DNA from: Actinomycetota bacterium
GTDB taxonomy: Bacteria; Actinomycetota; Thermoleophilia; Gaiellales; Gaiellaceae
Direction of reading: 5' to 3'
DNA length: 52,068 nucleotides
Assembly (NCBI GenBank): GCA_003161615.1
Contig: PMOB01000033.1
Coordinates: forward strand, 1-52,068
Shown here one piece after another: positions 9,013-47,356 of the stretch. The position numbers were made by a program, and so were the translations under genes. The notes under the pieces were generated by a model. It was not told the DNA's origin. It made no database searches and worked only from the letters and a program-made list of their open reading frames with translations. The first letter of the stretch is position 1. Each line of letters starts with the position of its first letter.

Positions 9013-12000
9013 ATGCGGATGCGCCGCGCGTTGCGCAAGAAGACATTCGTCGTTCTGCTGCTCACAATTGCGGCAGCCTCTGGGGTACTGCTGATCGGAT
9101 CGGCCGGTTCGGCCTCGGCCAACGGCTCGGTCACGTACACCGCACAGGAAACACAGCCGATCCCGCCGGCGCAGAATTACGCCGGGACCGCGAGTGGAGA
9201 CGGGTGGGCGCTCGGGTTCTACAACGGGCGCGTCTACAACGTCCTGCACCACGCGACGAAGCTGCAACTCGCCTGTCACATCCAGAGCACTGCGGCGTCC
9301 TGTCCGAACGCCGTCGAGACGATCACCGATGGATCGGGGAACAACTTTGCGACCTCCACCGGCCCGGGCACGTACGTCGACCAGGCAACCGGCAAGATGT
9401 GGGTCTACGCAAGGCGGACCGTTGACGAGACGGCAGGCGTCGTCTGCATCGACCTGACGATCTCCGACACGAATCCGAATCCGTACTGTGGCTTCGTGCC
9501 GCTCTCGGCGATTGGTGACGCCGCCACCAACGCCGGACGGTCACTCATCGGCAACCCGATGATGGTCGGCTCCCGCCTGTACGACTTCAACTTCGTCGCG
9601 AATGTCGGAGTCGTCGGCACGAAGAACAAGATCCTCTGCTTCGACACCAGCACCGACACAGCGTGCGCCGGACAGCCGTATACGGTGACCATCGGCGTCC
9701 CGGGAGCGACCCTGAACTCTTTTGTCCCTGAGCCGTACGACGCGGCCATCGGCACAGATCTCATCTTTCCGCTCCAGGTGAACGGCAACAACAAGCTCGC
9801 CTGCTTCGACACGACCACGAACACGACATGCGCCGGCTCATGGCCGGTGGCGACCCCGACGGTCACCGTCGAGACGTATGGAGCTCCGTTCCCGATGCTC
9901 GACCCGACGGGATCCACGGTGACCGGTTTCTGCCTGCCGAACGGCACCGACCCGTGCTTCAGCCTCACGGGTGCGTCTGTCGCGACTCCGGCCGGGATGA
10001 GCGCAGCCATTCCGCAGAATGTCTTGACGAACGGGGCGTCGGTAGTCATCGGACCGCGCGTCTACGTACCGAACGGGAACAGCAATGCCGTTGACTGCTG
10101 GGACTACTCGCAGGCGGCGAGCTGCTCCGGCTTCCCGAGGGCTTTCTCGAATCTCGCAACTCTCTACACAGTCAACGCCGATCCGCAGCGGCCGGCCTGC
10201 ATCTGGGTCAACTCGGACGTCGGCGCATTCCAGATTCAGAACTTCGATGCCTACACCGGTGGGCCGTGCACCCAGAACCGCGTGCTTGCCTCGCAGTTCG
10301 TTGTCTCCGGTCTGCCGCAGTGCGTCCCGACGACGTACACGTCGTTCCAAATCATTTCGCCGACTCCTGACGTCTACGGAGGCGGCTCGGTCCAGTTCGC
10401 GGATGGTGACGGCATTCCGATTCCCGGTCTCCCGACCGTGCCGCTCGATGCGACCGGCACCGCCGATCTGACCGGGCTGAACCTGAGCACGCCGACGGGA
10501 TTGCCGCAGTTCCTCATCACGCTGGCCAACGGAAATATCAGCAACGTGCCGCTCACGACCAAGTTGACGTGGGTCGCCCCCTTCGACCCGGCCTGCGGAG
10601 CCTCCAAGGCAACGACGTCGCTCGACGCGAACCTCAACGACGGGACGACCACGGCGAAGAGCCTCACCGAGTGGGCGGGGACCCCGGTGACGAACCAGGG
10701 GATTCTCAGCGGTACGAACGCGGCAACCGCGACCGGAACTGTGACCTACCACTGGTACACGGACAACTCGTGCTCCACGCAGGCGACGTCCGACTCCGTG
10801 CAAACGATCACGACGCCGGGCACGCTGCCGGCCTCTGATCCGGTCAACCTCCCGGCGGGCACGTACTACGAGACCGTCGACTACAGCGGTGACACCGCTA
10901 ACTCTGCCTCGAGCACGCCGTGCGGTCTGGAGACCCTCGTGGTCCAGCAGACGCCGACGAACATCACGTACATCGGTGATACGCACGTCCTCGTAGGAGC
11001 GTCGGCGACCATCGCGTTCCAGCTCACGGACACGGACGGGAACGTCCTGCCGGGCATGCCGGTGACGATCACGCTGCCGGGCGGCTCGACGTTCTCGGGC
11101 ACGACGGATGCGAACGGCGTCCTCTCCGACGTCGTCACCGCGCCGCTGACCGTGGGCTCCTATCCGGTCTCCGAGTCCTTCGCCGGACAGGGACCCCTTG
11201 GCCGCTACCTGGCAAGCAATGGCTCCGGGACGCTCGTCACGAGCGACATCCCGACGAACATCACCTACACCGGTGACACGACCGTCCAGGCCGGCCAGCC
11301 GGCGACGATCTCGTTCGTCCTCAAGGACAGCTCGGGGAACGTTCTGCCGCACATGCCGGTCTCGCTGACGCTGCCCGACGGCTCGCCGTTCAGCGGCACG
11401 ACCGATGCGAACGGCGTCGTCTCGACGACGATCACCGCGCCGATGCACACTGGCACCCTTTCGACTTCCGAGTCGTTCGGCGGCCAGGTGCCGTACGAGT
11501 CGAGCACCGGCCCGGGCACCATCCAGGTCACCCCGATCCCGACCCACATCACCTACCTCGGTGACACGACCGTCCAGGCCGGCCAGCCGGCAACGGTCAA
11601 GTACGTCCTCAAGGACGGCTCGGGCAACGTCCTGGCGGGGATGCCGATCACGGTCAACCTGCCGTTCGGCGGCACGGCCACCGGCACCACCGATGCGAAC
11701 GGCGTCTTCACGACGACCCAGACCGCACCGATGACCACCGGCTCCTACGGCACCACGGAGTCGTTCGGCGGCCAGGACCCGTACCAGTCGAGCACCGGCC
11801 CGGGCACCATCCAGGTCACCCCGATCCCGACCCACATCGCGTACGTCGGAGACACGCAGGTGTACTCCGGCCAGCCGGTGACGGTCACGTTCGTCCTTAC
11901 GAACAACGTCACCTCGACCCCGCTCGCAGGGATGCTGGTGACGATCAACCTCCCGTTCGGCGGCACCTTCACCGGAACCACCGACGCGCTCGGCATGGTC

Positions 12001-13737
12001 TCGGACACGATCACGTCGCCGATCGTCTCGAGCAACACGACCTACGGGACGACCGAGACCTTCGCGGGCCAGGAGCCGTACCTCGGAAGCAACGGCCCCG
12101 GCTCGATTCTCGTGAAGCCGATCCCGACGAACATCACGTACACCGGTGACACGAGCGTCACCGCCGGCTCGACGGCAAACGTGAGGTTCGTCCTAAGGAA
12201 CTCGATCACGAACAACGTCCTGCCGAACATGCCCGTCACGATCACGCTGCCGGGCGGCGGCACCGTCGCGGGCACCACTGACGCGAACGGCGTCTTCTCG
12301 ACGACCACCGGCACGCTCTCGGCAGGTAGCTACTCGGTCTCCGAGGCGTTCGGCGGGAAGAACCAGTACCTCGCGAGCACCGGGCCCGGCACGATCACCG
12401 TGACGGCGGCACCTCCGCCCCCGCTCAACTGCTCTGCCAAGGGCAAGACGGGCGCGAAGTGCGAATCGATCCTCGCCGACCCGACCGTCGTGTCCAATTC
12501 GCAGCTCTCGATCGTGGCGACGGACGACTCGTCGTTCGCCGGGGCGTGCGCACCAACCGCGATCCTGATGAGCAACGGGCAGCAGCTCGCCGTCTCGACG
12601 AGCCCGACGAGCGGCCAGCCGCAGAACTACGTCAACAACTACAACGGCTCGTTGTCGGCGAAGTACCAGGAGCTGATCAAGATCAACCTCCCGTCGGGCC
12701 TCACGTCGGGCCAGTACTCGATCCGGATCACTGCCTGCGACGGCGACGGCGACATGGACCAGTGGACGTGGAACATCGCGGTCGACGGCAGCGGCAACGT
12801 CACCAGCGTCAGCACCGGCCCCGGCCCGATCGACTGCACCGCCAAGGGGACGAAGTGCGAGTCGATCCTCGCCGACCCGGCCGTCGCGTCGAACTCGCAG
12901 CTGACGATCGTGGCGATGGACGACTCGCCGATCGGCACGAGCGGCGCAACGGCACCGAATGCCGTCCTCACGAGCGGCCAGGTGCTCAACGTCACGACTG
13001 CTGCAACCACCGGACAGCCACAGAACTACGTCGACAGCTTCAAGGGCTCGATGTCGACGAAGTACCAGACGCTGATCACGATCAACCTGCCGAGTCTCTC
13101 GGCCGGCAACTACACGATCCGCGTCACGGCCTACGACGGCGACGGCGACCTCGACCAGTGGAACTGGCCGATCAGCGTCGACGGCAGCGGCAACGTCACG
13201 ACCAGCGCCTCCGGCGGAGGTAGTGGCGGGACGCTCGCCAGCGGCACCACGACCTGCAACGGCGTCTACAGCGGTACAGGCCAGAGCGTGACGGTCCCGG
13301 CCGGCGCCACCTGCACGCTGCTTCCGGGCACGCACGTGACCGGGGCCGTGAATGTGGCGAAGGGCGGCACCCTGGTCGCGAGCGGCGTGACGATCGGAGC
13401 CAACCTCGCGATCCAGGGCAGCGCAACGGTGTGTGCCAGCACGATCGGCAACGACCTCACGGCCACCGGCGCACCGGGACCGGGAGGCGGCCCGATCGTG
13501 ATCGGCGGCAGCTCCTGCGCAGGCAACACGGTCACCCACGACCTGAACGTCACCGGTGAGACGGGTGGTGTCAGCGTCGTGAGCAACCAGGTCGGGCACG
13601 ACATGAACGTCAAGAACGACGGCCCGAACACCGTGGTCAGCGACAACACCGTCGGCCACGATGCGAACTGCGACAAGAACGCCGGCCAGAGTGGCTCAGG
13701 CAACAGTTCGAGCCACAACGACAGCTGCCCCATCTGA
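9013..13737 (+). CDS. Very large secreted repeat protein (propeller-like N-terminus, Ig-like repeats, beta-helix-like C-terminus)
   Basis: A 1,574-residue exported protein. A basic N-terminus and hydrophobic segment end at about GSASA (residues 32-37), a signal peptide with an AxA-like site. Residues 40-480 hold Cys-containing units such as CFDTSTDTACAGQPYT, reminiscent of beta-propeller blades. Five Ig-like repeats of 96-99 residues start near 648, 747, 843, 939 and 1038, each opening PTxIxYxGDT and containing GTTDANGV (Big_1-like). Two 130-residue repeats start at 1140 and 1275, each with KCESILADP and an acidic DGDGDxDQW loop that may bind calcium. The C-terminal 160 residues alternate small and beta-branched residues, as in a beta-helix. 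No LPxTG or membrane anchor is seen, so it is probably released or bound to the glycan. It looks like a matrix or adhesion protein. I do not know a named homologue. Confidence 0.88.
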   Translation: MRMRRALRKKTFVVLLLTIAAASGVLLIGSAGSASANGSVTYTAQETQPIPPAQNYAGTASGDGWALGFYNGRVYNVLHHATKLQLACHIQSTAASCPNAVETITDGSGNNFATSTGPGTYVDQATGKMWVYARRTVDETAGVVCIDLTISDTNPNPYCGFVPLSAIGDAATNAGRSLIGNPMMVGSRLYDFNFVANVGVVGTKNKILCFDTSTDTACAGQPYTVTIGVPGATLNSFVPEPYDAAIGTDLIFPLQVNGNNKLACFDTTTNTTCAGSWPVATPTVTVETYGAPFPMLDPTGSTVTGFCLPNGTDPCFSLTGASVATPAGMSAAIPQNVLTNGASVVIGPRVYVPNGNSNAVDCWDYSQAASCSGFPRAFSNLATLYTVNADPQRPACIWVNSDVGAFQIQNFDAYTGGPCTQNRVLASQFVVSGLPQCVPTTYTSFQIISPTPDVYGGGSVQFADGDGIPIPGLPTVPLDATGTADLTGLNLSTPTGLPQFLITLANGNISNVPLTTKLTWVAPFDPACGASKATTSLDANLNDGTTTAKSLTEWAGTPVTNQGILSGTNAATATGTVTYHWYTDNSCSTQATSDSVQTITTPGTLPASDPVNLPAGTYYETVDYSGDTANSASSTPCGLETLVVQQTPTNITYIGDTHVLVGASATIAFQLTDTDGNVLPGMPVTITLPGGSTFSGTTDANGVLSDVVTAPLTVGSYPVSESFAGQGPLGRYLASNGSGTLVTSDIPTNITYTGDTTVQAGQPATISFVLKDSSGNVLPHMPVSLTLPDGSPFSGTTDANGVVSTTITAPMHTGTLSTSESFGGQVPYESSTGPGTIQVTPIPTHITYLGDTTVQAGQPATVKYVLKDGSGNVLAGMPITVNLPFGGTATGTTDANGVFTTTQTAPMTTGSYGTTESFGGQDPYQSSTGPGTIQVTPIPTHIAYVGDTQVYSGQPVTVTFVLTNNVTSTPLAGMLVTINLPFGGTFTGTTDALGMVSDTITSPIVSSNTTYGTTETFAGQEPYLGSNGPGSILVKPIPTNITYTGDTSVTAGSTANVRFVLRNSITNNVLPNMPVTITLPGGGTVAGTTDANGVFSTTTGTLSAGSYSVSEAFGGKNQYLASTGPGTITVTAAPPPPLNCSAKGKTGAKCESILADPTVVSNSQLSIVATDDSSFAGACAPTAILMSNGQQLAVSTSPTSGQPQNYVNNYNGSLSAKYQELIKINLPSGLTSGQYSIRITACDGDGDMDQWTWNIAVDGSGNVTSVSTGPGPIDCTAKGTKCESILADPAVASNSQLTIVAMDDSPIGTSGATAPNAVLTSGQVLNVTTAATTGQPQNYVDSFKGSMSTKYQTLITINLPSLSAGNYTIRVTAYDGDGDLDQWNWPISVDGSGNVTTSASGGGSGGTLASGTTTCNGVYSGTGQSVTVPAGATCTLLPGTHVTGAVNVAKGGTLVASGVTIGANLAIQGSATVCASTIGNDLTATGAPGPGGGPIVIGGSSCAGNTVTHDLNVTGETGGVSVVSNQVGHDMNVKNDGPNTVVSDNTVGHDANCDKNAGQSGSGNSSSHNDSCPI
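10954..12408 (+). repeat. Five tandem Ig-like repeat units within the secreted protein gene
   Basis: Unit starts (Pro codon) are at 10954, 11251, 11539, 11827 and 12124, giving 96 to 99 codons per unit. Units 2, 3 and 4 are spaced by exactly 288 bases and share long identical DNA stretches. One is around 11268-11300 and 11556-11588; another, of about 50 bases, is at 11498-11549 and 11786-11837. This shows recent intragenic duplication or gene conversion. They are coding repeats, not CRISPR. Confidence 0.85.
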
Positions 13738-25206: not shown

Positions 25207-25922
25207 TGGGCGCGCGTCGCCTGATCGGCCGTTATCGCCCGAGCCGAGTCCGCGAGCGTCGGCACATCGAGGAGAGGGTTGCGCTCTCGCAGCGCGTCAG
25301 CGCGATGCTCGACGGCACGGTCGCGCGCGGCCCGTTCGCCGGGATGCGCATGCCAGAGGTACTGCCCGACACGTCCGCGAAGCTGCTCGGCTCCTACGAG
25401 GAGGAGCTGCACCCAACGCTCGAGCGGCTGCTCGGCGGAGACTTCGACGTCGTCGTCAACGTCGGCTGCTCGGACGGCTACTACGCGGTGGGAGCGCTCC
25501 GCCGGCTGAGCGCGGCCCGAGGGGTCGCGTTCGACCTCAACGAGAGCTTCCGGAAGGCGACCGCCGCCACTGCCGCTGCGAATCACGTCGAGTTGAAGAT
25601 CGAGTCGACGTGCTCGCCCGCACGGCTTCGAGAGCTGGCCGGCACATCCCGGGTGCTGGTGATCTGCGACTGCGAAGGCTGCGAGCGCGACCTGATCGAG
25701 CCCGAGACGACGGGGCTCGCGAGCATCGTCGTCGAGCTCCATCCCGGCACCGAGGATCTCGCGCAGCGATACGGCGCCGGCTACGTCGTCACGCTCGTGG
25801 AAAGCACGGGCCGCGATCCGAGTGGCTACCCGGAGCTCGCGACGCTCGCTTCGGAGGAACGTTCCCTCGCGGTGTTCGAGCGGATGGAGCCGCAGACGTG
25901 GGCCGTTATCGAGCCAGCGTGA
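25206..25922 (+). CDS. FkbM-like / class I methyltransferase
   Basis: A 238-residue protein. I take ATG 25206, which overlaps the previous TGA, instead of the open frame to 24891 that lies inside the previous gene. The SAM-binding loop is VVVNVGCSDGYYAVGALRRL (about 79-98), with the ribose-binding acid in VAFDLNESFRKATAA. A later stretch, LVICDCEGCERDLIEPE, resembles the D-x-E-G motif of FkbM-type O-methyltransferases, with two Cys residues added. The last part, ERMEPQTWAVIEPA, overlaps the convergent sulfotransferase-GT4 fusion gene by 17 bases. The methyl acceptor is unknown. Classification as FkbM-like is tentative. Confidence 0.75.
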   Translation: MGARRLIGRYRPSRVRERRHIEERVALSQRVSAMLDGTVARGPFAGMRMPEVLPDTSAKLLGSYEEELHPTLERLLGGDFDVVVNVGCSDGYYAVGALRRLSAARGVAFDLNESFRKATAATAAANHVELKIESTCSPARLRELAGTSRVLVICDCEGCERDLIEPETTGLASIVVELHPGTEDLAQRYGAGYVVTLVESTGRDPSGYPELATLASEERSLAVFERMEPQTWAVIEPA

Positions 25923-27663
25923 GGTAGGCGGCGAGAGTCGCGTCGGCTGTCGCCTCCCAGCTGAACCGCTCGCGCACATGCTCGGCGAGGCCCGGCGTGG
26001 CGCCGGCCTCGAGCGCCTCCTCGACCGCAGTCCGAATCGACCTCCGCTGCGCGGGATCGCAGTACACCGCCAAGTCCCCGAAGTACTCGCGCGTGTCTCC
26101 CCGTGAGGTCGTGACGACCGCGCACCCGCACGCTGCCGCCTCGAGCGACACGAGGCCGGTGGTCTCGAACCACGAGGGAAGGACGTGCACCTTTGCGGTA
26201 CGGAAGAGCTCGGCGAGCTCCTCCTGCGTGAGCACGGATCGGAACTCGACGTTCGGGCCGGCCGCGGCGCGACAACGCTCGGCGTAGCCCGGGTGATGGG
26301 GATGCTCCTCACCGACGAGGGTCAACGGCACTGCGACGCCGCGCAGCGCCTTGATCAGGCCGAGTTGGTTCTTGTGGGGCTCGAGCCGCGCAACGCACAC
26401 GATGCCCTGGCGCTCGACCGGCGTCTCGGGAGACGAGAAGGTGCGGGGGTCGAAGCCGTTGTAGACGACGTGCATCGGGGTCGTCACGTCGAGGGTCGAC
26501 CGGATGCGCAGCGCCTCGCTCTCCGAGTTCGGCAGCAGCAGATCGGCGAGTTCGAGGAGCATCGCTGCCTCCTCGGCGCGCCCGCGAACGCGCGCTGCTG
26601 TCGCGTCGATGCCTCGGCGAACGCTCGAGACGGTCAGGCGCGCCGCTCGGTTGGGCGACCGCAACAGTCGCCCGGCCAGGCCCTGCGCAGCTCCGTACTC
26701 CCAGTAGATCGGCGAAACGACGACCCGCGCCCCGCGCCGTCGCGCCTCACGCAGGACGTCGCGGATGTGCAGCGGAGAGCCGAAGGCGTGCACGATGTCG
26801 TAGCCGGAGACGTCGGCGCCGGCGGCGTTCGCCACCGTGACGTCTACCCCACTCAGCCTCAGGAACTCGGCGGTCTTCTGGGCCTGCATCAGATGGCCGC
26901 CGTGAATCGCTCCCTCCGCCAGCATGAGGACGCGTGGCGACCACTCGGCGGCTGAGACGTGCGAGCCGGCCGGCCGTGGCCTCGCCACCCGGCTGTTGTG
27001 CCACGGAAACGGCTCAGTCGGCGTGTCGACTCCCAGGAACGGACAGAGGCGCTCCCAACCCTCCCCGCTGCAGATGTCGAGGACGAGCAGCTTGTCGGGG
27101 CGGTCTGCGAAGCGCTCGCGAACCGCCTGCTCGTGCGAGCGGCGGACGGCGGCAAAGCGCTCCGCGGCGAAGTCGCTGCTCCCGTAGAGGTGCTTCTCGA
27201 TCGCCGCGGTGTACGCCGAGTGGTCGATGGAACGACCCAGGCGGCGCCGCAGAGGGCCGGTGATGAGCGCCCGCAGTCCGCGATCGAAGCGGCTCCGCCC
27301 AGCGCCGAGGCGCCGGCCCTTGGGATGTCGCTCGGGATCGCCCCAGTACGCCTCGCAGGAACGCAGCCACGACGCCTCGTCGCGGACGGTGAGGATGAAC
27401 TTGGCGTCTGGATACGCCTCGTCGAGCCCCTCGTAGACGCAGCAGATCGGCGTGTCGGAGACAGCGTCGAGGTCGCCGAGCACCGTGAGCTCGAGAGGGC
27501 CGGCAGCCCCTTGGTCGAGGTAACGGATGATCTCTCGCCGCGTGGCCGGATCGGCGGGAAAATGCACGGTGCGGAGGCCGAGCCGGACGAGCGCTGCACC
27601 GAGACTCGCGCCGCCGGTCCTGCTCAGGCCGATCCCGAAGACCTTCTGAGGGGCCACGGACAT
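25906..27663 (-). CDS. Fusion protein: N-terminal sulfotransferase + C-terminal GT4 glycosyltransferase
   Basis: A single 585-residue reading frame with two complete enzymes. Residues 1-226 are a Sulfotransfer_4-like domain. The phosphosulfate loop is GIGLSRTGGASLGAALVRLG (10-29), the 3'-phosphate region KFILTVRDEASWLRS (88-102), and the typical ending GWERLCPFLGV...EPFPWHN (202-223). A short linker follows. Residues 243-585 are a GT4 domain: MLAEGAIHGGHLMQAQKTAE, NGFDPRTF, VCVARLEPHKNQLGLIKAL and the EX7E pair in ETTGLVSLE. ATG 27663 overlaps the upstream GT4's stop by one base (TGATG). It is the last gene of the 12-gene operon. The arrangement suggests sulfation of the sugar that is added, or of the growing chain, by one protein. 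That coupling is inference; domain identification is firm. Confidence 0.88.
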   Translation of the reverse strand: MSVAPQKVFGIGLSRTGGASLGAALVRLGLRTVHFPADPATRREIIRYLDQGAAGPLELTVLGDLDAVSDTPICCVYEGLDEAYPDAKFILTVRDEASWLRSCEAYWGDPERHPKGRRLGAGRSRFDRGLRALITGPLRRRLGRSIDHSAYTAAIEKHLYGSSDFAAERFAAVRRSHEQAVRERFADRPDKLLVLDICSGEGWERLCPFLGVDTPTEPFPWHNSRVARPRPAGSHVSAAEWSPRVLMLAEGAIHGGHLMQAQKTAEFLRLSGVDVTVANAAGADVSGYDIVHAFGSPLHIRDVLREARRRGARVVVSPIYWEYGAAQGLAGRLLRSPNRAARLTVSSVRRGIDATAARVRGRAEEAAMLLELADLLLPNSESEALRIRSTLDVTTPMHVVYNGFDPRTFSSPETPVERQGIVCVARLEPHKNQLGLIKALRGVAVPLTLVGEEHPHHPGYAERCRAAAGPNVEFRSVLTQEELAELFRTAKVHVLPSWFETTGLVSLEAAACGCAVVTTSRGDTREYFGDLAVYCDPAQRRSIRTAVEEALEAGATPGLAEHVRERFSWEATADATLAAYLTLAR

Positions 27664-41450: not shown

Positions 41451-42134
41451 GTGGAAGCCTGTCCGGCGGAGAGGCTCGGCCGTCGCTCCGTCCACGTCTG
41501 GCTGTTTGCGCTCGCCGACGTCGCCGAAGACGAGCTGTCACCGATCGACGAGGCCGAGCGCGCCAGAGCGGACGGCTTCGCGTTCGAGGAGGACAGGCGC
41601 CGATTTCTGGCCGGGCGGGCCTGCCTCCGCAGCGTCTGCAGCCGATACGTGGCCGACCCCGCCGAGCCCTTCAGCAGCCTCTCCCACAGCGGCGACCTGA
41701 TCGCAGTCGCCGTCGCCCGGCGTGAGGTCGGGATCGACGTCGAGCAGCTCCGCGGGATCGAGCCCGAGCCCGCGCTCGTCACCCGCGCCTGTACGGCCGC
41801 GCAGCGGAGCCGGCTTGAGCGGGTCGCTCCCGAAGAACGTGAGCGGTTGTTCCTCGCGCAGTGGGTGCGGAAAGAAGCCGTAGGCAAGGCGCTCGGCGTC
41901 GGGCTCGACCTTGCCCTGTCTCCTACGAAGGTCACGGCGTTTCCGCGCGCCGGCGGTCGCCGATACCGCGGAATCTGGCGCGTCTTGGAGATAGAGACGC
42001 CGGAGGGCTATGCCGGCGCGGTCGCCGCCCGCGGGGTTGCCGCGCGGCTCGTCGTTCGCCGCAGCCCCTCGATCTCCGGGATCAACACCGCGGCAACCTT
42101 CCGCATGCCGGCTTCCGTCGCCAGTTCGAAGTGA
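41451..42134 (+). CDS. 4'-phosphopantetheinyl transferase (Sfp type)
   Basis: A 227-residue enzyme that moves phosphopantetheine from CoA to a carrier-domain serine. The Sfp motifs are present: SSLSHSGDLIAVAVA (about 75-89, CoA-binding SHS), VGIDVEQL (93-100, Mg2+-binding D96 and E98) and FLAQWVRKEAVGKALG (134-149) with the W-x-x-K-E-A catalytic part. GTG 41451 gives the usual family length. The obvious target is S544 of the NRPS-like protein encoded tail-to-tail on the other strand. The last 42 codons and stop overlap that gene's 3' end by 127 bases. From about residue 205 the chain (RRSPSISGINTAATF) is antisense to the thioesterase end and may be dispensable. Confidence 0.9.
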   Translation: MEACPAERLGRRSVHVWLFALADVAEDELSPIDEAERARADGFAFEEDRRRFLAGRACLRSVCSRYVADPAEPFSSLSHSGDLIAVAVARREVGIDVEQLRGIEPEPALVTRACTAAQRSRLERVAPEERERLFLAQWVRKEAVGKALGVGLDLALSPTKVTAFPRAGGRRYRGIWRVLEIETPEGYAGAVAARGVAARLVVRRSPSISGINTAATFRMPASVASSK

Positions 42135-44644
42135 CGACCGCCGATCGGAACCTGCTTGGCCGGAGCGGTCAGGAAGCGGTCCCATGGTTCGGCCGGGAAG
42201 GTGCTCGGATCGCACCTCAACACCGTCAGCGGGCCGTCGTAGCGGCTGTCCGGCAGATACGAGTCGAGCAGTCCTCCGTAGATGCGCATCGCGAACGTGG
42301 CTCGAAGCGCGAGCGGCACCGCAGGCCCTCCTGCGGTAGCCGCGCGCATGAGCTCGTCGTCGGCTGCCTGACGCGCACGGGCTCGGCGATCGCTTCCGCT
42401 CACGAACGCCGCGCTGCGGCGGGCACGGAAGGCGAGCTGGCGAGCCGCGAGGCGCAGGGCGTAGCGGGCAGCTGCGGCGGCCGGCATCTCTCGCAGCTCG
42501 CTGGCGCGCGCGGCCGCCCGTTCGCGCAACCCGAACCCAGGGGGCACCGAGTCGCCGAGCAGGAGTACCGGCACGTCCTCGCCGGCGCGCCGGAGCTGCC
42601 GGGCCATCTCGAAGCCGATCGTGCCGCCGGAAGACGCCCCATACAGGAGGTACGGCCCGTGCGGTCGCACCGTGCGGATCGCGGCGACGTAGCTTCCGGC
42701 AAGCTCCTCGATCGAGCGCTCGGGAATCCCCCGGCCTTCGAGCGCCTGGCCGAGTAGGCCGTAGATCGGGAAGCCGTCCGGGAGCAAAGTCGAGAGAAGG
42801 CGTGTGTGGACGACCTCCCCGTAGACGTCGTGCACGACGAAGAGCGGCGGCCCGGAGCCCTCGCTGCGCGCCGTGACGAGCGGCGACGGGGCGGAGCCTG
42901 TCTCGAGGAGAGCAGCCAGCTGGCGGACGGTCGGCGCCTCGACGAGCACGGAGACCGGCAGGTCGACGGCGAGCTCCTCGTTCATGCCGATGATTACGCG
43001 CGCCCCGCGCAGCGAGTCGCCGCCGACCGTGAAGAAGTCGTCCTCCACGCCGAGGCCCTCGGACCCGAGGACTTCCTGCCAGCGCCGCAGGATCCGCTCC
43101 TCGAGCTCGGTCTCCGGCGGCGCCGACGACTCGCCCGCAAGCCTGCGAGCGACCGGAAGCCGCAGCCGATCGACCTTGCCGCCGGGCAGACGGGGCAGCT
43201 CGTCGAGGACGGCGATTCCGTCCGGAAGCAGCGGCGCAGGCAGACGCCGCGTCAGCTCGACGCGAAGCGCGCTCGGATGCAGTGACTTCCCCTGGACGGG
43301 AACGACGGAGGCGGTGAGGCGAAGCTCGCCCGCCTCGTCGACGTAGGTCGTGGCGGCGGCGTCCGCCACACCGTCGAGTTGACGCAACGTCGCCTCGAGA
43401 TGTCCCAGCTCGACCCGGTTGCCGGCGATCTTCACCATGTGGTCGGCGCGCCCGCGGTACTCGATGTTGCCGTCGGGCAGCAGCCGGCCGAGATCGCCGG
43501 TGCGAACCCGGCGCAGGCCGTCGCCGAGCTCGGTGAACGTCTGCGCCGTCTCCTCGGGGCGCTTCCAGTACCCCAGTGACGTCTCTCGGCTCGTCACGAC
43601 GATCTCGCCCGGCTCACCCGGCGGCACGGGCTGTCCTTCCTCGTCGACGAGCTCGACCAGCTTTCCCGGGAACGGCACGCCTAGGGGAAGCGCCCCTGTT
43701 CCGAGCTCCGTGCCCACGTCGATGACGTAGTGGAGGACGCCGCCGGCCTCCGTGCCGCTGTAGAGGTTGATTATCTGGACGTTTGGCGCCAGGTGGCGCC
43801 TGATTTCTGCGACGTCTTCCCACGTCGAGGCCTCGCCGCTGAGGTAGAAGGTTGTCGCGCCGATGAGCTCGTTCGGACCGAGGGCGGCCATGATGTGCCG
43901 CACGAGCGTCGGAACACCGCCGAAGTTGAAGGTGTTCATCGAACGCAGCCACTCTGGTATCCCGGTCAGACCGTCGCGCCGGATCTCGTACGCAGCGATG
44001 GTCGCGCCTGTCCCGATGTACGTCTCGAGGCTGAGGACGGTCGCATTGTTGGAGCCGATCGCGATCACCGCGGCACGCGGGAACTCCTGCGCAGCATGGA
44101 GGTCGCCGGTGAGCATGCTGGCGTAGTTCCGCTGCGCCATGACGATGCCCTTCGGCTCTCCGGTCGAGCCTGACGTGAACGCGATCGACACGTACTCGCC
44201 CGGCGGGACGTCCGCCCAGTCGGTAGGCGGCTCGGCAACGAGATCGAGCGGATTGATCGCCTCGACGCCCGCCTCTGACTCGGCGAGGTCGGTCAAGATC
44301 GCCGTTGCTTCGACGTCGGCGGCCACTCGGCGGACGTGCTCGGCCGGCGCAGTTGGATCGATCGGGACGGTCACCATTCCGGCCCGACCGACCGCCAGCG
44401 ACGCGATCAGCACCGCCCTCGTGCTCTCGATCTGGAGCATGACGTGGTGGCGGCCGGAACCGAGCCGGTCGACGAGCGCGGCCGCGACGCTCGCCGTCGC
44501 CGCGTCGAGCTCGGCGTAGGTCATACGGTCGTCGCCGACCTCGAGCGCCAATCTGTCCGGATCGCTAGCCGCGATCTCCCGCAGCACCTCGGACGCGGCG
44601 GCTTCCCCCTGGACTGCCACGCGCGGAACCCTAGCGCTGGTCAC
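42008..44644 (-). CDS. NRPS-like enzyme: adenylation - carrier - thioesterase (A-PCP-TE)
   Basis: An 878-residue single-module enzyme without a condensation domain. The adenylation domain (about 20-500) has A3 FTSGSTGEPKG (156-166), A5 NLYSGTEAG (293-301), A7 RTGDLGR (381-387), A8 GRADHMVKIAGNRVE and A10 LPGGKVD with Lys490. Where A4 normally reads FDxSV, I align NNATV (199-203), so the Asp that holds the amino group of amino acids seems absent. The carrier domain has DDFFTVGGDSL with Ser544 for phosphopantetheine. The thioesterase (about 590-860) has the GASSG elbow (Ser671) and GGRHFEL for the catalytic His. GTG 44644 overlaps the stop of the free thioesterase gene as GTGA. A-PCP-TE enzymes such as RalA-type synthetases act on alpha-keto or hydroxy acids. 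The product here is unknown. Confidence 0.92.
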   Translation of the reverse strand: MTSARVPRVAVQGEAAASEVLREIAASDPDRLALEVGDDRMTYAELDAATASVAAALVDRLGSGRHHVMLQIESTRAVLIASLAVGRAGMVTVPIDPTAPAEHVRRVAADVEATAILTDLAESEAGVEAINPLDLVAEPPTDWADVPPGEYVSIAFTSGSTGEPKGIVMAQRNYASMLTGDLHAAQEFPRAAVIAIGSNNATVLSLETYIGTGATIAAYEIRRDGLTGIPEWLRSMNTFNFGGVPTLVRHIMAALGPNELIGATTFYLSGEASTWEDVAEIRRHLAPNVQIINLYSGTEAGGVLHYVIDVGTELGTGALPLGVPFPGKLVELVDEEGQPVPPGEPGEIVVTSRETSLGYWKRPEETAQTFTELGDGLRRVRTGDLGRLLPDGNIEYRGRADHMVKIAGNRVELGHLEATLRQLDGVADAAATTYVDEAGELRLTASVVPVQGKSLHPSALRVELTRRLPAPLLPDGIAVLDELPRLPGGKVDRLRLPVARRLAGESSAPPETELEERILRRWQEVLGSEGLGVEDDFFTVGGDSLRGARVIIGMNEELAVDLPVSVLVEAPTVRQLAALLETGSAPSPLVTARSEGSGPPLFVVHDVYGEVVHTRLLSTLLPDGFPIYGLLGQALEGRGIPERSIEELAGSYVAAIRTVRPHGPYLLYGASSGGTIGFEMARQLRRAGEDVPVLLLGDSVPPGFGLRERAAARASELREMPAAAAARYALRLAARQLAFRARRSAAFVSGSDRRARARQAADDELMRAATAGGPAVPLALRATFAMRIYGGLLDSYLPDSRYDGPLTVLRCDPSTFPAEPWDRFLTAPAKQVPIGGRHFELATEAGMRKVAAVLIPEIEGLRRTTSRAATPRAATAPA

Positions 44645-45510
44645 CCGTTTGCAGCGAGCCCGATCTCGGTTGTCAGCACGGCGGCAACCTCCCGGACGGC
44701 TGCCTCGGTCCCGAGGTCGATGTGGCGACGGCTAACGGGAACCTGCTTGGCCGGGCTGGTCACGTAGCGGTTCCAGGGCTCCACCGGAAGCCTGCTCTCG
44801 GGGCAACGCAAGACGGTAAGCGGGCCGTCGTACGGGCTGTCCGGCTTGTACGCGACGGTCATCCAGCCGTACACGAGCACCGCGAAACTGGTTCTGAGTG
44901 CGGGCGGCACCGCGGTCCCGCCTTTGGCGGCCGCCTGCATGAGCTCGTTGTCGGCGGCTCGACGGGCCCGGTCGCTGCGAACGTCCCCGGTCACCCGTGC
45001 CGACACTCGATGGGCGCGGAAGGCGAGTTGGCGGGCGGCGATGCGCAGCACGTAGCGGCTCGCCGCGCCGACCGGCAGCTCCTTCAGCTCGCGCGCTCGG
45101 GCAGCCGCCCGCTCGCTGCGACCCCACTTCATCGGAGTACCCGGAGCGATGCTGTCACCGAGCACGAGGACAGGCACGTCCTCGCCGGCGCGGCGGAGCT
45201 GCCGCGCTATCTCGAAGGCGATCGTGCCGCCGGCCGAAGCCCCGTACAGGCGGTACGGCCCGTGCGGGCTGACAGTTCGCATGGCCGCGGCGTAGCGTCC
45301 GGCGAGCTCCTCAATCGAACGCTCCGGAATCATTCGGCCCTGAAGCGCCTGGCCGCGTAGGCCGTAGATCGGGAAGCCTTCGGGGAGCAGCGTCGCAAGC
45401 AGACGGGTGTACACGACCTCCCCACCGACGTCATGCACCACGAAGAGCGGCGGCTCGGAGCCCTCGCTGCGCGCGAGGACGAGTGGCGACCAGGTAGCGG
45501 CGCCGTCCAT
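44641..45510 (-). CDS. Stand-alone alpha/beta-hydrolase thioesterase, paralogue of the NRPS-like TE domain
   Basis: A 289-residue thioesterase that is a full-length copy of the C-terminal domain of the next gene. SPLVLARSEGSEPPLFVVHD at its start matches the linker and first strand after the carrier domain there, so the copy begins just after the PCP boundary. The nucleophile elbow is YGASAGGTIAFE (Ser92) and the His region SRRHIDLGTEA near 266. The lid segment with ERAAARARELKELP is also shared. It could offload, proofread (type II TE) or act as an acyltransferase on the same carrier. It lies four bases after the ABC exporter stop and overlaps the NRPS-like start, so expression is tightly coupled. 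Confidence 0.9.
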   Translation of the reverse strand: MDGAATWSPLVLARSEGSEPPLFVVHDVGGEVVYTRLLATLLPEGFPIYGLRGQALQGRMIPERSIEELAGRYAAAMRTVSPHGPYRLYGASAGGTIAFEIARQLRRAGEDVPVLVLGDSIAPGTPMKWGRSERAAARARELKELPVGAASRYVLRIAARQLAFRAHRVSARVTGDVRSDRARRAADNELMQAAAKGGTAVPPALRTSFAVLVYGWMTVAYKPDSPYDGPLTVLRCPESRLPVEPWNRYVTSPAKQVPVSRRHIDLGTEAAVREVAAVLTTEIGLAANG

Positions 45511-45514
45511 GCCT

Positions 45515-47320
45515 CTACTCGACGCCGAGCAACTCGGTCTCGGCGTCGCGGCTGACGAGCGTGGAGTAGCGGCCGCCGAGCGCCCTCAGCTCCTCGTGGC
45601 GGCCGCGCTCGACCACTCGGCCACGGTCGAGCACGACGATCTGATCGGCGTCCCGGACAGTCGAGAGGCGGTGAGCGATCGCGATCGTCGTCCGCCCCTC
45701 CGACAGGCTGTCGAGCGCTTCCTGCACCAACCGCTCCGTCTCCGTGTCGAGCGAGCTCGTCGCCTCGTCCAGTACGAGGATCGGCGGGTCGCGAAGAATC
45801 GTCCGCGCGATCGCGATCCGCTGCTTCTCCCCACCCGAGAAGCGATAGCCGCGCTCACCGACCACCGTGCCGTACCCGTCGGGCAGCGCCGCGATGACGT
45901 GGTGGATGCGGGCCGCCTCGGCCGCTGCGACGACCTCCTCCTCCGTCGCGTCGGGCTTCGCGAAGACGAGGTTCTCGCGCACACTCGCATGAAAGAGGTA
46001 CGCCTCTTGCGACACGACCCCGACGAGCCCGGCAAGCGCCTCGAACGAAAGGTCACGGACGTCGACCCCGCCGACTCTGACATTGCCGCGCTCGGCCTCG
46101 TACAGCCGCGCCACGAGATAGCCGAGCGTCGTCTTTCCTGAGCCGGTCTCGCCGACGAGCGCGGTAGTCGTCCCGGCCGGAACGAAGAAACTCACGTCTT
46201 CGAGGACCCACGGGCCTTCGCCGTATCGGAACCAGACGCCCTCGACTGCAACGTCCGCGCCGCTTGTCACCTGCTCCCGCGCGCCAGGCCGCTCGGAGAT
46301 ATCGACCGGCTGGTCGAGGTACTCGAAGATCCGGTCGAAGAGGGCCAGCGACGTCTGGATGTCGAGTCCGACGCCGAGCAACGAGTTGGCCGTCCAGAAG
46401 ACGCGCATCTGCAGCGTCGTGAAGGCGACGAGCAACGGTACGGAGATATGGCCGCCGGCCGCGGACCCTCCGAACCAGTAGACCGCAATGGGCATCGCCG
46501 CCATGCTCGTCTGGATCGAGGCCATCACCCACTTGCCGGCCATGCGCTGCCGTACCTGGAGGTCGGCGAGCTTGAGCGAGTCGCGCTCGAAGCGGTCGGC
46601 GAGCTCGCTCGTGCGCCCCATCGTCTTCCCGAGCAGAACACCCGAGACCGAGAGGGACTCCTGCACGAGGCTCGAGAGGTCGGCGAGCGTCTCCTGGGTT
46701 CTCGTGGCGACCTTGCGCCGCTCCCACCCGACGCGCTTGGTCAGCGCGACGGCAACGGGAATGAGCGCGAGCGCGAAGAGGGTGAGCTCCCAGCTGAGGA
46801 TGAACATCGCCACGACCGCGGCGATGAGCGTCGTGGCGCTGGCCGCGATCGAGGTCGCGGTCTCCGTGACGACGTTCTGGATGCCGCCGATGTCGTTGTT
46901 GATCCGCGACTGGACCTCGCCGCCGCGAGTGCGCGTGAAGAAGGCGAGGGAGAGCCTCTGCAGGTGCCGGAAGACGGCGGCGCGCAGATCGTGCATCACC
47001 CGCTGGCCGATCTGGTTCGAGAGCAGCGTTTGTCCGACGCCGAGGACGCCGTCGATCGCCGTGACGCCGAGGATCGCGCCCGCGGCGATCGCGAGCGTCT
47101 GCGAGTCGTGCCGGAGGATGGCTGCGAGCGCGCTCTTGAGGAGAAACGCCGGCACCACGCCAAGCGCCGCGCCGACGACTATGAGACCCCAGAGGACGGC
47201 GAGCCGCCGCCGATAGGGAACGAAGAGCCGACCGATGCGGCGGAGGTTTGTGCGGCGCACGGCGGCGTCAGCCGGCCGCTCCGGCCAGCCCATGGCCGAC
47301 TTCACGCGCGCCGGAAGCAT
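45515..47320 (-). CDS. ABC exporter, fused membrane and ATPase domains (copy 2)
   Basis: A 601-residue ABC half-transporter, very similar along its full length to the exporter at 4824-6626. Both share FFTRTRGGEVQSRINNDIGG, ESLSVSGxLLGKTMGRT, Walker A GETGSGKTT, signature FSGGEKQR, Walker B ILVLDEATSSLDT and the H-loop. The DNA is also close, for example around 45653-45715 and 4968-5030. TTG 47326, ATG 47320 and ATG 47293 are possible starts. ATG 47320 puts 11 residues before WPER, the same as the start of copy 1, and is chosen. The gene lies four bases before the thioesterase and NRPS-like genes, so this copy likely exports their product or a glycan carrying it. Confidence 0.92.
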   Translation of the reverse strand: MLPARVKSAMGWPERPADAAVRRTNLRRIGRLFVPYRRRLAVLWGLIVVGAALGVVPAFLLKSALAAILRHDSQTLAIAAGAILGVTAIDGVLGVGQTLLSNQIGQRVMHDLRAAVFRHLQRLSLAFFTRTRGGEVQSRINNDIGGIQNVVTETATSIAASATTLIAAVVAMFILSWELTLFALALIPVAVALTKRVGWERRKVATRTQETLADLSSLVQESLSVSGVLLGKTMGRTSELADRFERDSLKLADLQVRQRMAGKWVMASIQTSMAAMPIAVYWFGGSAAGGHISVPLLVAFTTLQMRVFWTANSLLGVGLDIQTSLALFDRIFEYLDQPVDISERPGAREQVTSGADVAVEGVWFRYGEGPWVLEDVSFFVPAGTTTALVGETGSGKTTLGYLVARLYEAERGNVRVGGVDVRDLSFEALAGLVGVVSQEAYLFHASVRENLVFAKPDATEEEVVAAAEAARIHHVIAALPDGYGTVVGERGYRFSGGEKQRIAIARTILRDPPILVLDEATSSLDTETERLVQEALDSLSEGRTTIAIAHRLSTVRDADQIVVLDRGRVVERGRHEELRALGGRYSTLVSRDAETELLGVE

Positions 47321-47356
47321 CCGCAAAGACTATGCGCGGACTCGCCGAAACTCATT

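What the first reader, a model, noticed from the sequence alone, without database searches (positions are those of the whole stretch)
44032..44050. A-domain lacks the usual substrate-binding Asp in core motif A4
In alpha-amino-acid A domains motif A4 reads FDxSV and its Asp holds the substrate amino group. By hand alignment anchored on GAT (residues 213-215), the same place here reads NNATV (199-203), with Asn for Asp. Known: loss of this Asp is typical of A domains using aryl acids, keto acids or hydroxy acids. Inference: the loaded substrate is not a common alpha-amino acid.
Basis: partly seen in the sequence, partly recalled or inferred. Interest (0 to 1): 0.6.

Follow-up and report, generated by a model that had tools for sequence, protein, structure and literature searches.

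The report
Single-module synthetase lacking amino-acid-binding aspartate
A lone enzyme that resembles one step of a peptide-antibiotic assembly line lacks the residue that normally grips an amino acid, as do all its sequenced relatives found here, so it probably loads a different kind of acid, and it sits among sugar-coat genes.

Summary
Window gene 42008-44644 (-) is an intact 878-aa A-T-TE protein. Its A4 stretch reads SNNATV, and Asn200 takes the place of GrsA Asp235 in three alignments. The nearest Asp residues are 181 and 224, so no sensible realignment restores it. A second amino-acid mark, the Pro of A5 GPTE, is also gone (YSGTE).

This is a family trait. Nine A domains form one clade (99/99). 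None of the 9 has the Asp or the Pro, whereas 33 of 41 other A domains have both. All 8 members scored fall below NCBI's amino-acid A-domain cut-off; 4 of 4 controls pass.

The inference that the substrate is not a common alpha-amino acid is well supported but unproven: McyG activates Phe with Val at this position (PMC11253843). An EntE-type aryl acid is disfavoured; a hydroxy, keto or other carboxylic acid is likelier.

In its genome this is the only NRPS-type carrier, with no condensation domain. It has an adjacent PPTase, a duplicated TE and an ABC exporter, in an exopolysaccharide island. Relatives are enriched near glycosyltransferases (6 of 7 against 1 of 10).

The parts
42008..44644 (-). 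A-T-TE single-module NRPS-like synthetase, 878 aa, GTG start
   Evidence: Pfam AMP-binding 22-360, AMP-binding_C 416-490 (below Pfam cut-off), PP-binding 516-580, Thioesterase 600-715
44036..44050 (-). A4 motif NNATV (residues 199-203); Asn200 codon 44045-44047 at the GrsA Asp235 place
43748..43768 (-). A5 motif NLYSGTE (residues 293-299); Gly297 (43754-43756) in place of the Pro of GPTE, Glu299 kept
43175..43177 (-). A10 Lys490 (GGKVDR), equivalent of GrsA Lys517, kept
   Evidence: alignment
42905..43099 (-). T (carrier) domain, Ser544 of GGDSL as pantetheine site
42065..42847 (-). Thioesterase domain with Ser671, Asp698, His838
   Evidence: triad by alignment to EntF
44641..45510 (-). Free-standing second thioesterase (TE2), 70% identical to the fused TE, triad kept, stop overlaps the A-T-TE start by 4 nt
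45515..47326 (-). MsbA-type ABC exporter, 4 nt upstream of TE2, same strand
41451..42134 (+). Phosphopantetheinyl transferase, convergent, 3' end overlaps the A-T-TE by 127 nt

Best explanation
The gene encodes a stand-alone A-T-TE enzyme. Its A domain activates a carboxylic acid without a free alpha-amino group, most likely an alpha-hydroxy or alpha-keto acid, and loads it on its own T domain, which the neighbouring PPTase arms. The fused TE, perhaps helped by TE2, then releases the acyl group as an ester, dimer or free product that serves the exopolysaccharide locus or is pumped out by the adjacent ABC exporter. Shown here: intact domains, loss of Asp235 and of the A5 Pro in the whole clade, kept catalytic residues, operon layout, no other NRPS-type partner in the genome, glycan context. 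Inferred: substrate class, TE outcome, use of the product. My estimates: 0.75 that the substrate is not a common alpha-amino acid; 0.35 that the acyl group ends on a glycan.
For: Asn at the Asp235 place. The 9-member clade has no Asp and no A5 Pro; the two sites co-vary over 50 A domains (33 both, 2 Asp only, 0 Pro only, 15 neither; Fisher 6e-11, not corrected for kinship). TIGR01733 cut-off failed by 8 of 8 members scored, passed by 4 of 4 controls. Other catalytic motifs kept, so not a dead domain. Own genome (95% complete): 0 condensation domains, 2 carrier proteins, 2 PPTase-family genes. TE2 under purifying selection, dN/dS about 0.15-0.30. Glycosyltransferase nearby in 6 of 7 family loci of at least 17 kb against 1 of 10 control A-domain loci, p=0.0037; without the window 5 of 6, p=0.0076.
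Against: McyG activates L-Phe without this Asp (PMC11253843). Asn is not the Val or Ile reported for keto acids nor the Gly or Ala reported for hydroxy acids. The other code residues differ widely within the clade, so members may have different substrates. Two of the 8 loci scanned, L040 (full length) and L041 (6.4 kb contig), have no glycosyltransferase, and the ABC exporter is found in the window only. No biochemical or good structural evidence.
Confidence: 0.6

Rival explanations
1. Keto-acid dimer synthetase like EchA/DatA: the A domain loads an aromatic alpha-keto acid and the TE condenses two units into a quinone or furanone that the ABC exporter secretes.
For: Same A-T-TE layout without C domain; DatA shown to turn phenylpyruvate into polyporic acid in a Streptomyces (PMC9379647 passages); A-T-TE enzymes described as using aromatic alpha-keto acids (PMC9047271 passages); exporter in the operon.
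Against: First code residue is Asn, not Val (PMC10316625); family sits near glycan genes; EchA, DatA and RalA were not placed in the tree.
Confidence: 0.2
2. Acyl loader for polysaccharide decoration: a small hydroxy or other acid is loaded and the TE passes it to a sugar hydroxyl or to a lipid-linked glycan.
For: Window is an EPS island (glycosyltransferases, Bac_transf, Wzy_C, RmlD); relatives near glycosyltransferases, DegT aminotransferase, PglD-like hexapeptide protein, carbamoyltransferases.
Against: No acyltransferase partner identified; co-location is not function; L026 lies next to ORFs that look by eye like a catechol siderophore cluster.
Confidence: 0.3
3. An alpha-amino acid is used after all, held by backbone or other pocket residues, as in McyG.
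For: Nearest solved relatives are amino-acid A domains (LgrA, TycA); A10 Lys kept; the family groups with NRPS A domains rather than EntE.
Against: Loss of both Asp and A5 Pro in 9 of 9 members; below TIGR01733 cut-off.
Confidence: 0.2
4. Aryl acid (DHB or salicylate type), Asn contacting a 2-hydroxyl as in DhbE.
For: DhbE has Asn235 (PMC11253843).
Against: A5 is NLYSGTE, not QQVxFMAEGL; no EntE-like insertion after A4; EntE lies outside the clade.
Confidence: 0.07

Closest known systems
Bacterial A-T-TE quinone synthetases EchA and DatA (and RalA)
   Same: A-T-TE without condensation domain, non-Asp first code residue reported for keto-acid enzymes
   Different: Asn instead of Val; not compared by sequence here; different gene neighbours (glycan island, TE2, exporter)
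NRPS amino-acid A domains (LgrA, TycA/GrsA, EntF)
   Same: Nearest by sequence; core motifs and A10 Lys kept
   Different: Asp235 and A5 Pro missing; TIGR01733 cut-off not reached
Aryl-acid ligases DhbE/EntE
   Same: Asn at position 235 as in DhbE
   Different: No QQVxFMAEGL, no insertion after A4, separate branch, fused T-TE
Sister clade with A at position 235 (L036/L041, L039/L043, L046/L069, L047/L070, L048/L071)
   Same: A-T-TE, no Asp, no A5 Pro, glycan surroundings
   Different: Different pocket residues (AVYYxGGVx); paired Amidohydro_2 genes and carbamoyltransferase near some of them, absent in the window

Membership tests
alpha-amino-acid A domain | Asp at GrsA position 235 | tested here: not met
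   Asn200; no Asp in residues 182-223
alpha-amino-acid A domain | Lys at GrsA position 517 | tested here: met
   Lys490 of GGKVDR
alpha-amino-acid A domain | Pro in A5 GPTE | tested here: not met
   YSGTE
alpha-amino-acid A domain | TIGR01733 curated score 317.4 | tested here: not met
   236.6 bits; 8 of 8 members scored below, 4 of 4 controls above
Aryl-acid ligase (DhbE/EntE) | A5 QQVxFMAEGL | tested here: not met
   NLYSGTE; motif from PMC11253843
Aryl-acid ligase (DhbE/EntE) | Groups with EntE and shares its insertion after A4 | tested here: not met
   tree (EntE on a long branch); alignment
A-T-TE keto-acid quinone/furanone synthetase | A-T-TE without C domain | tested here: met
   no condensation domain in the genome
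A-T-TE keto-acid quinone/furanone synthetase | Val as first code residue | tested here: not met
   Asn; criterion from PMC10316625
A-T-TE keto-acid quinone/furanone synthetase | Shared clade with EchA/RalA; dimeric aryl pyruvate product | not tested
   reference sequences not in hand; product needs the bench
alpha-hydroxy-acid A domain | Small aliphatic first residue (Ala or Gly) | tested here: not met
   Asn in the window; Ala in 5 and Gly in 2 sisters

The most novel reading that the evidence does not exclude
A previously unnamed clade of glycan-linked A-T-TE enzymes, in which a single NRPS-like module activates non-amino carboxylic acids to decorate a surface polysaccharide, with the fused TE acting as the transfer enzyme.
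Probability: 0.25. Interest if true: 0.65.

Novelty: new variant of a known kind. Interest (0 to 1): 0.4.

Why it matters
Substrate predictors assume Asp235. A whole clade without it, outside the aryl-acid type, marks a class of single-module enzymes whose substrates these predictors may misread. Its link with surface-glycan genes would connect NRPS-like chemistry to polysaccharide decoration, which can be tested with one purified protein.

Tried and rejected
AlphaFold2 of the A domain with 5 rows gave mean pLDDT 52.6 and was dropped; no fold search was run on it. The genome-contig scan gave 9 loci, of which only L026 proved to be in the family. L027 and L033 read by eye as acyl-CoA-ligase-like, L029, L030 and L034 did not share the family A4/A5 pattern, and L028, L031 and L032 were not examined further. 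PPTase and ABC exporter are not enriched near the family (2 of 7 and 1 of 7 against 1 of 10 each). Aryl acid was rejected as above. Sequencing error was considered and judged unlikely. Rows dropped: short matches and duplicate loci, and L003 and L004 (distant ligases); from the tree, L021 and L067 (short); L065 as a copy of L039. The L025 residue at position 235 is Gly and Thr, never Asp. Control A domains taken are the best non-family hits to the family profile, not a random draw. Glycan searches used HMMs built from this window's own enzymes. No open-access paper describing this clade showed in listings 17, 32, 53, 67 and 68; that library is partial.

Full report
Observation. ORF 42008-44644 (-), 878 aa with GTG start, is an A-T-TE protein by Pfam. 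Residues 199-203 are NNATV. Phmmer aligns this stretch gaplessly with the SFDGSA motif of LgrA, Asn200 on the Asp. MAFFT with E. coli EntF and EntE gives the same, and an HMM of 35 Asp-type A domains gives the same with moderate posterior marks. Since residues 182-223 contain no Asp at all, the loss does not depend on register. Through EntF (DVWHFSLVD) the code reads NALGYSLGV, with Lys490 as tenth residue. The GrsA position numbers are those listed in PMC11253843 (passages); placing them on the motif anchors of EntF is from my own knowledge.

A second site. The A5 motif reads NLYSGTE where amino-acid A domains read GPTE. PMC11253843 states that the StsA Met at the place of this Pro matters for keto-acid binding, that the Pro is conserved in alpha-amino-acid domains, and that LgrA P483 mutants gain some keto-acid activity. 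That LgrA P483 is the GPTE Pro is my own reading of the alignment. Across the 50 A domains, 33 have both Asp and Pro, 2 have Asp only (L013, L049), none has Pro only, and 15 have neither: the 9 family members plus L012, L014, L037, L051, L060 and EntE. Fisher p is 6e-11, without correction for kinship.

A clade, not a quirk. The window A domain, L025, L026 (Phytohabitans maris), L036, L039, L046, L047, L048 and L072 form one group with 99/99 support in a 48-row tree. EntE lies outside on a long branch. Seven full-length relatives that I scanned are A-T-TE by Pfam (L025, L026, L041, L043; L069, L070, L071; L041, L043, L069, L070 and L071 are larger fetches of L036, L039, L046, L047 and L048). 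The TIGR01733 score is 236.6 for the window protein and 244-271 for the seven relatives, all under the cut-off of 317.4; four control A domains score 406-462. The family is sparse: 1 of 129 genomes of the window's order had a match of this kind, judged from the aligned hits, 2 of 396 genomes sampled over the phylum matched at E 1e-60, and 5 of 298 genomes of the G499 order scored above 530 bits with the next at 352.

Surroundings. On the minus strand an ABC exporter, TE2 and the A-T-TE follow each other with a 4-nt gap and a 4-nt overlap. TE2 is 70% identical to the fused TE, keeps the triad and has dN 0.20 and dS 0.67 by NG86, or 0.17 and 1.18 by YN00. A PPTase converges from the plus strand. 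The genome holds no condensation domain, one other carrier protein (an 83-aa open frame elsewhere, presumably the fatty-acid ACP) and one other PPTase-family gene. The system therefore looks self-contained: one module, its own PPTase, an extra TE, an exporter. The window around it carries glycosyltransferases, a Bac_transf initiating transferase, Wzy_C, sulfotransferases and RmlD.

Comparative context. With HMMs from the window's glycosyltransferases, 6 of 7 family loci of at least 17 kb (window included) hold one, against 1 of 10 control A-domain loci of that size (p=0.0037; without the window 5 of 6, p=0.0076). Over all sizes it is 6 of 8 against 2 of 18. Results against: L040 and the short L041 have none; PPTase and exporter are not enriched. 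Paired Amidohydro_2 genes flank L069, L070 and L071, one Amidohydro_2 frame is seen at L041, and carbamoyltransferases are near L043, L070 and L071; none of these is seen at the window.

Mechanism. The domain keeps the motifs of a working enzyme (A3 TSGSTG, A5 Glu299, A7 RTGD, A10 Lys490, T Ser544, TE Ser671/Asp698/His838). I infer ATP-dependent activation of a carboxylic acid without free alpha-amino group, transfer to the T domain, and release by TE. Asn could hydrogen-bond an alpha-hydroxyl or carbonyl, as DhbE Asn235 does with a ring hydroxyl; this is analogy only. Whether TE hydrolyses, dimerises as in DatA (PMC9379647 passages) or transfers to a sugar is not known.

Comparison with the known. 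Layout matches the A-T-TE enzymes that join aromatic alpha-keto acids (PMC9047271 passages; PMC10316625 passages, name RalA and EchA as bacterial counterparts), but the reported first-position Val is not met and those enzymes were not aligned. Against the amino-acid reading stand the two lost sites and the profile score; for it stand the McyG precedent and the nearest solved relatives. The aryl-acid reading fails on A5, on the insertion and on the tree.

Verdict.

Noticed in passing
window 44641-45510: Free-standing TE arisen by duplication of the fused TE, kept under purifying selection.
   Followed up: partly
window 42008-42134: Convergent 3' overlap of 127 nt between the A-T-TE gene and the PPTase gene.
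   Followed up: no
L069, L070, L071: Sister A-T-TE genes lie next to a pair of Amidohydro_2 genes; L070 and L071 also have a carbamoyltransferase, and L070 a phytanoyl-CoA dioxygenase-like and a radical SAM/SPASM gene: an undescribed-looking cluster type.
   Followed up: partly
L043:1480-2325: Good Pfam match to the WelO5 carrier-independent halogenase family, some kb from a family member.
   Followed up: no
L026:1-9312: Phytohabitans maris A-T-TE next to a GT2 gene and ORFs that by eye look like catechol siderophore genes (one reads QQVFGMAEGL like EntE).
   Followed up: no
L072: An IMG/VR contig end encodes a family member; the rest looks bacterial by eye, so its viral label is doubtful.
   Followed up: no
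window 25906-27663: Sulfotransferase domain fused to a GT4 glycosyltransferase (Pfam).
   Followed up: no
window 9013-13737: 1574-aa ORF with unusual codon-position GC (0.54/0.55/0.89) for this window.
   Followed up: no
family A domains, after A4 (window residues 220-226): By eye all nine members share (D/E)-x-R-x-x-G-(L/V) after A4, which EntF lacks.
   Followed up: no
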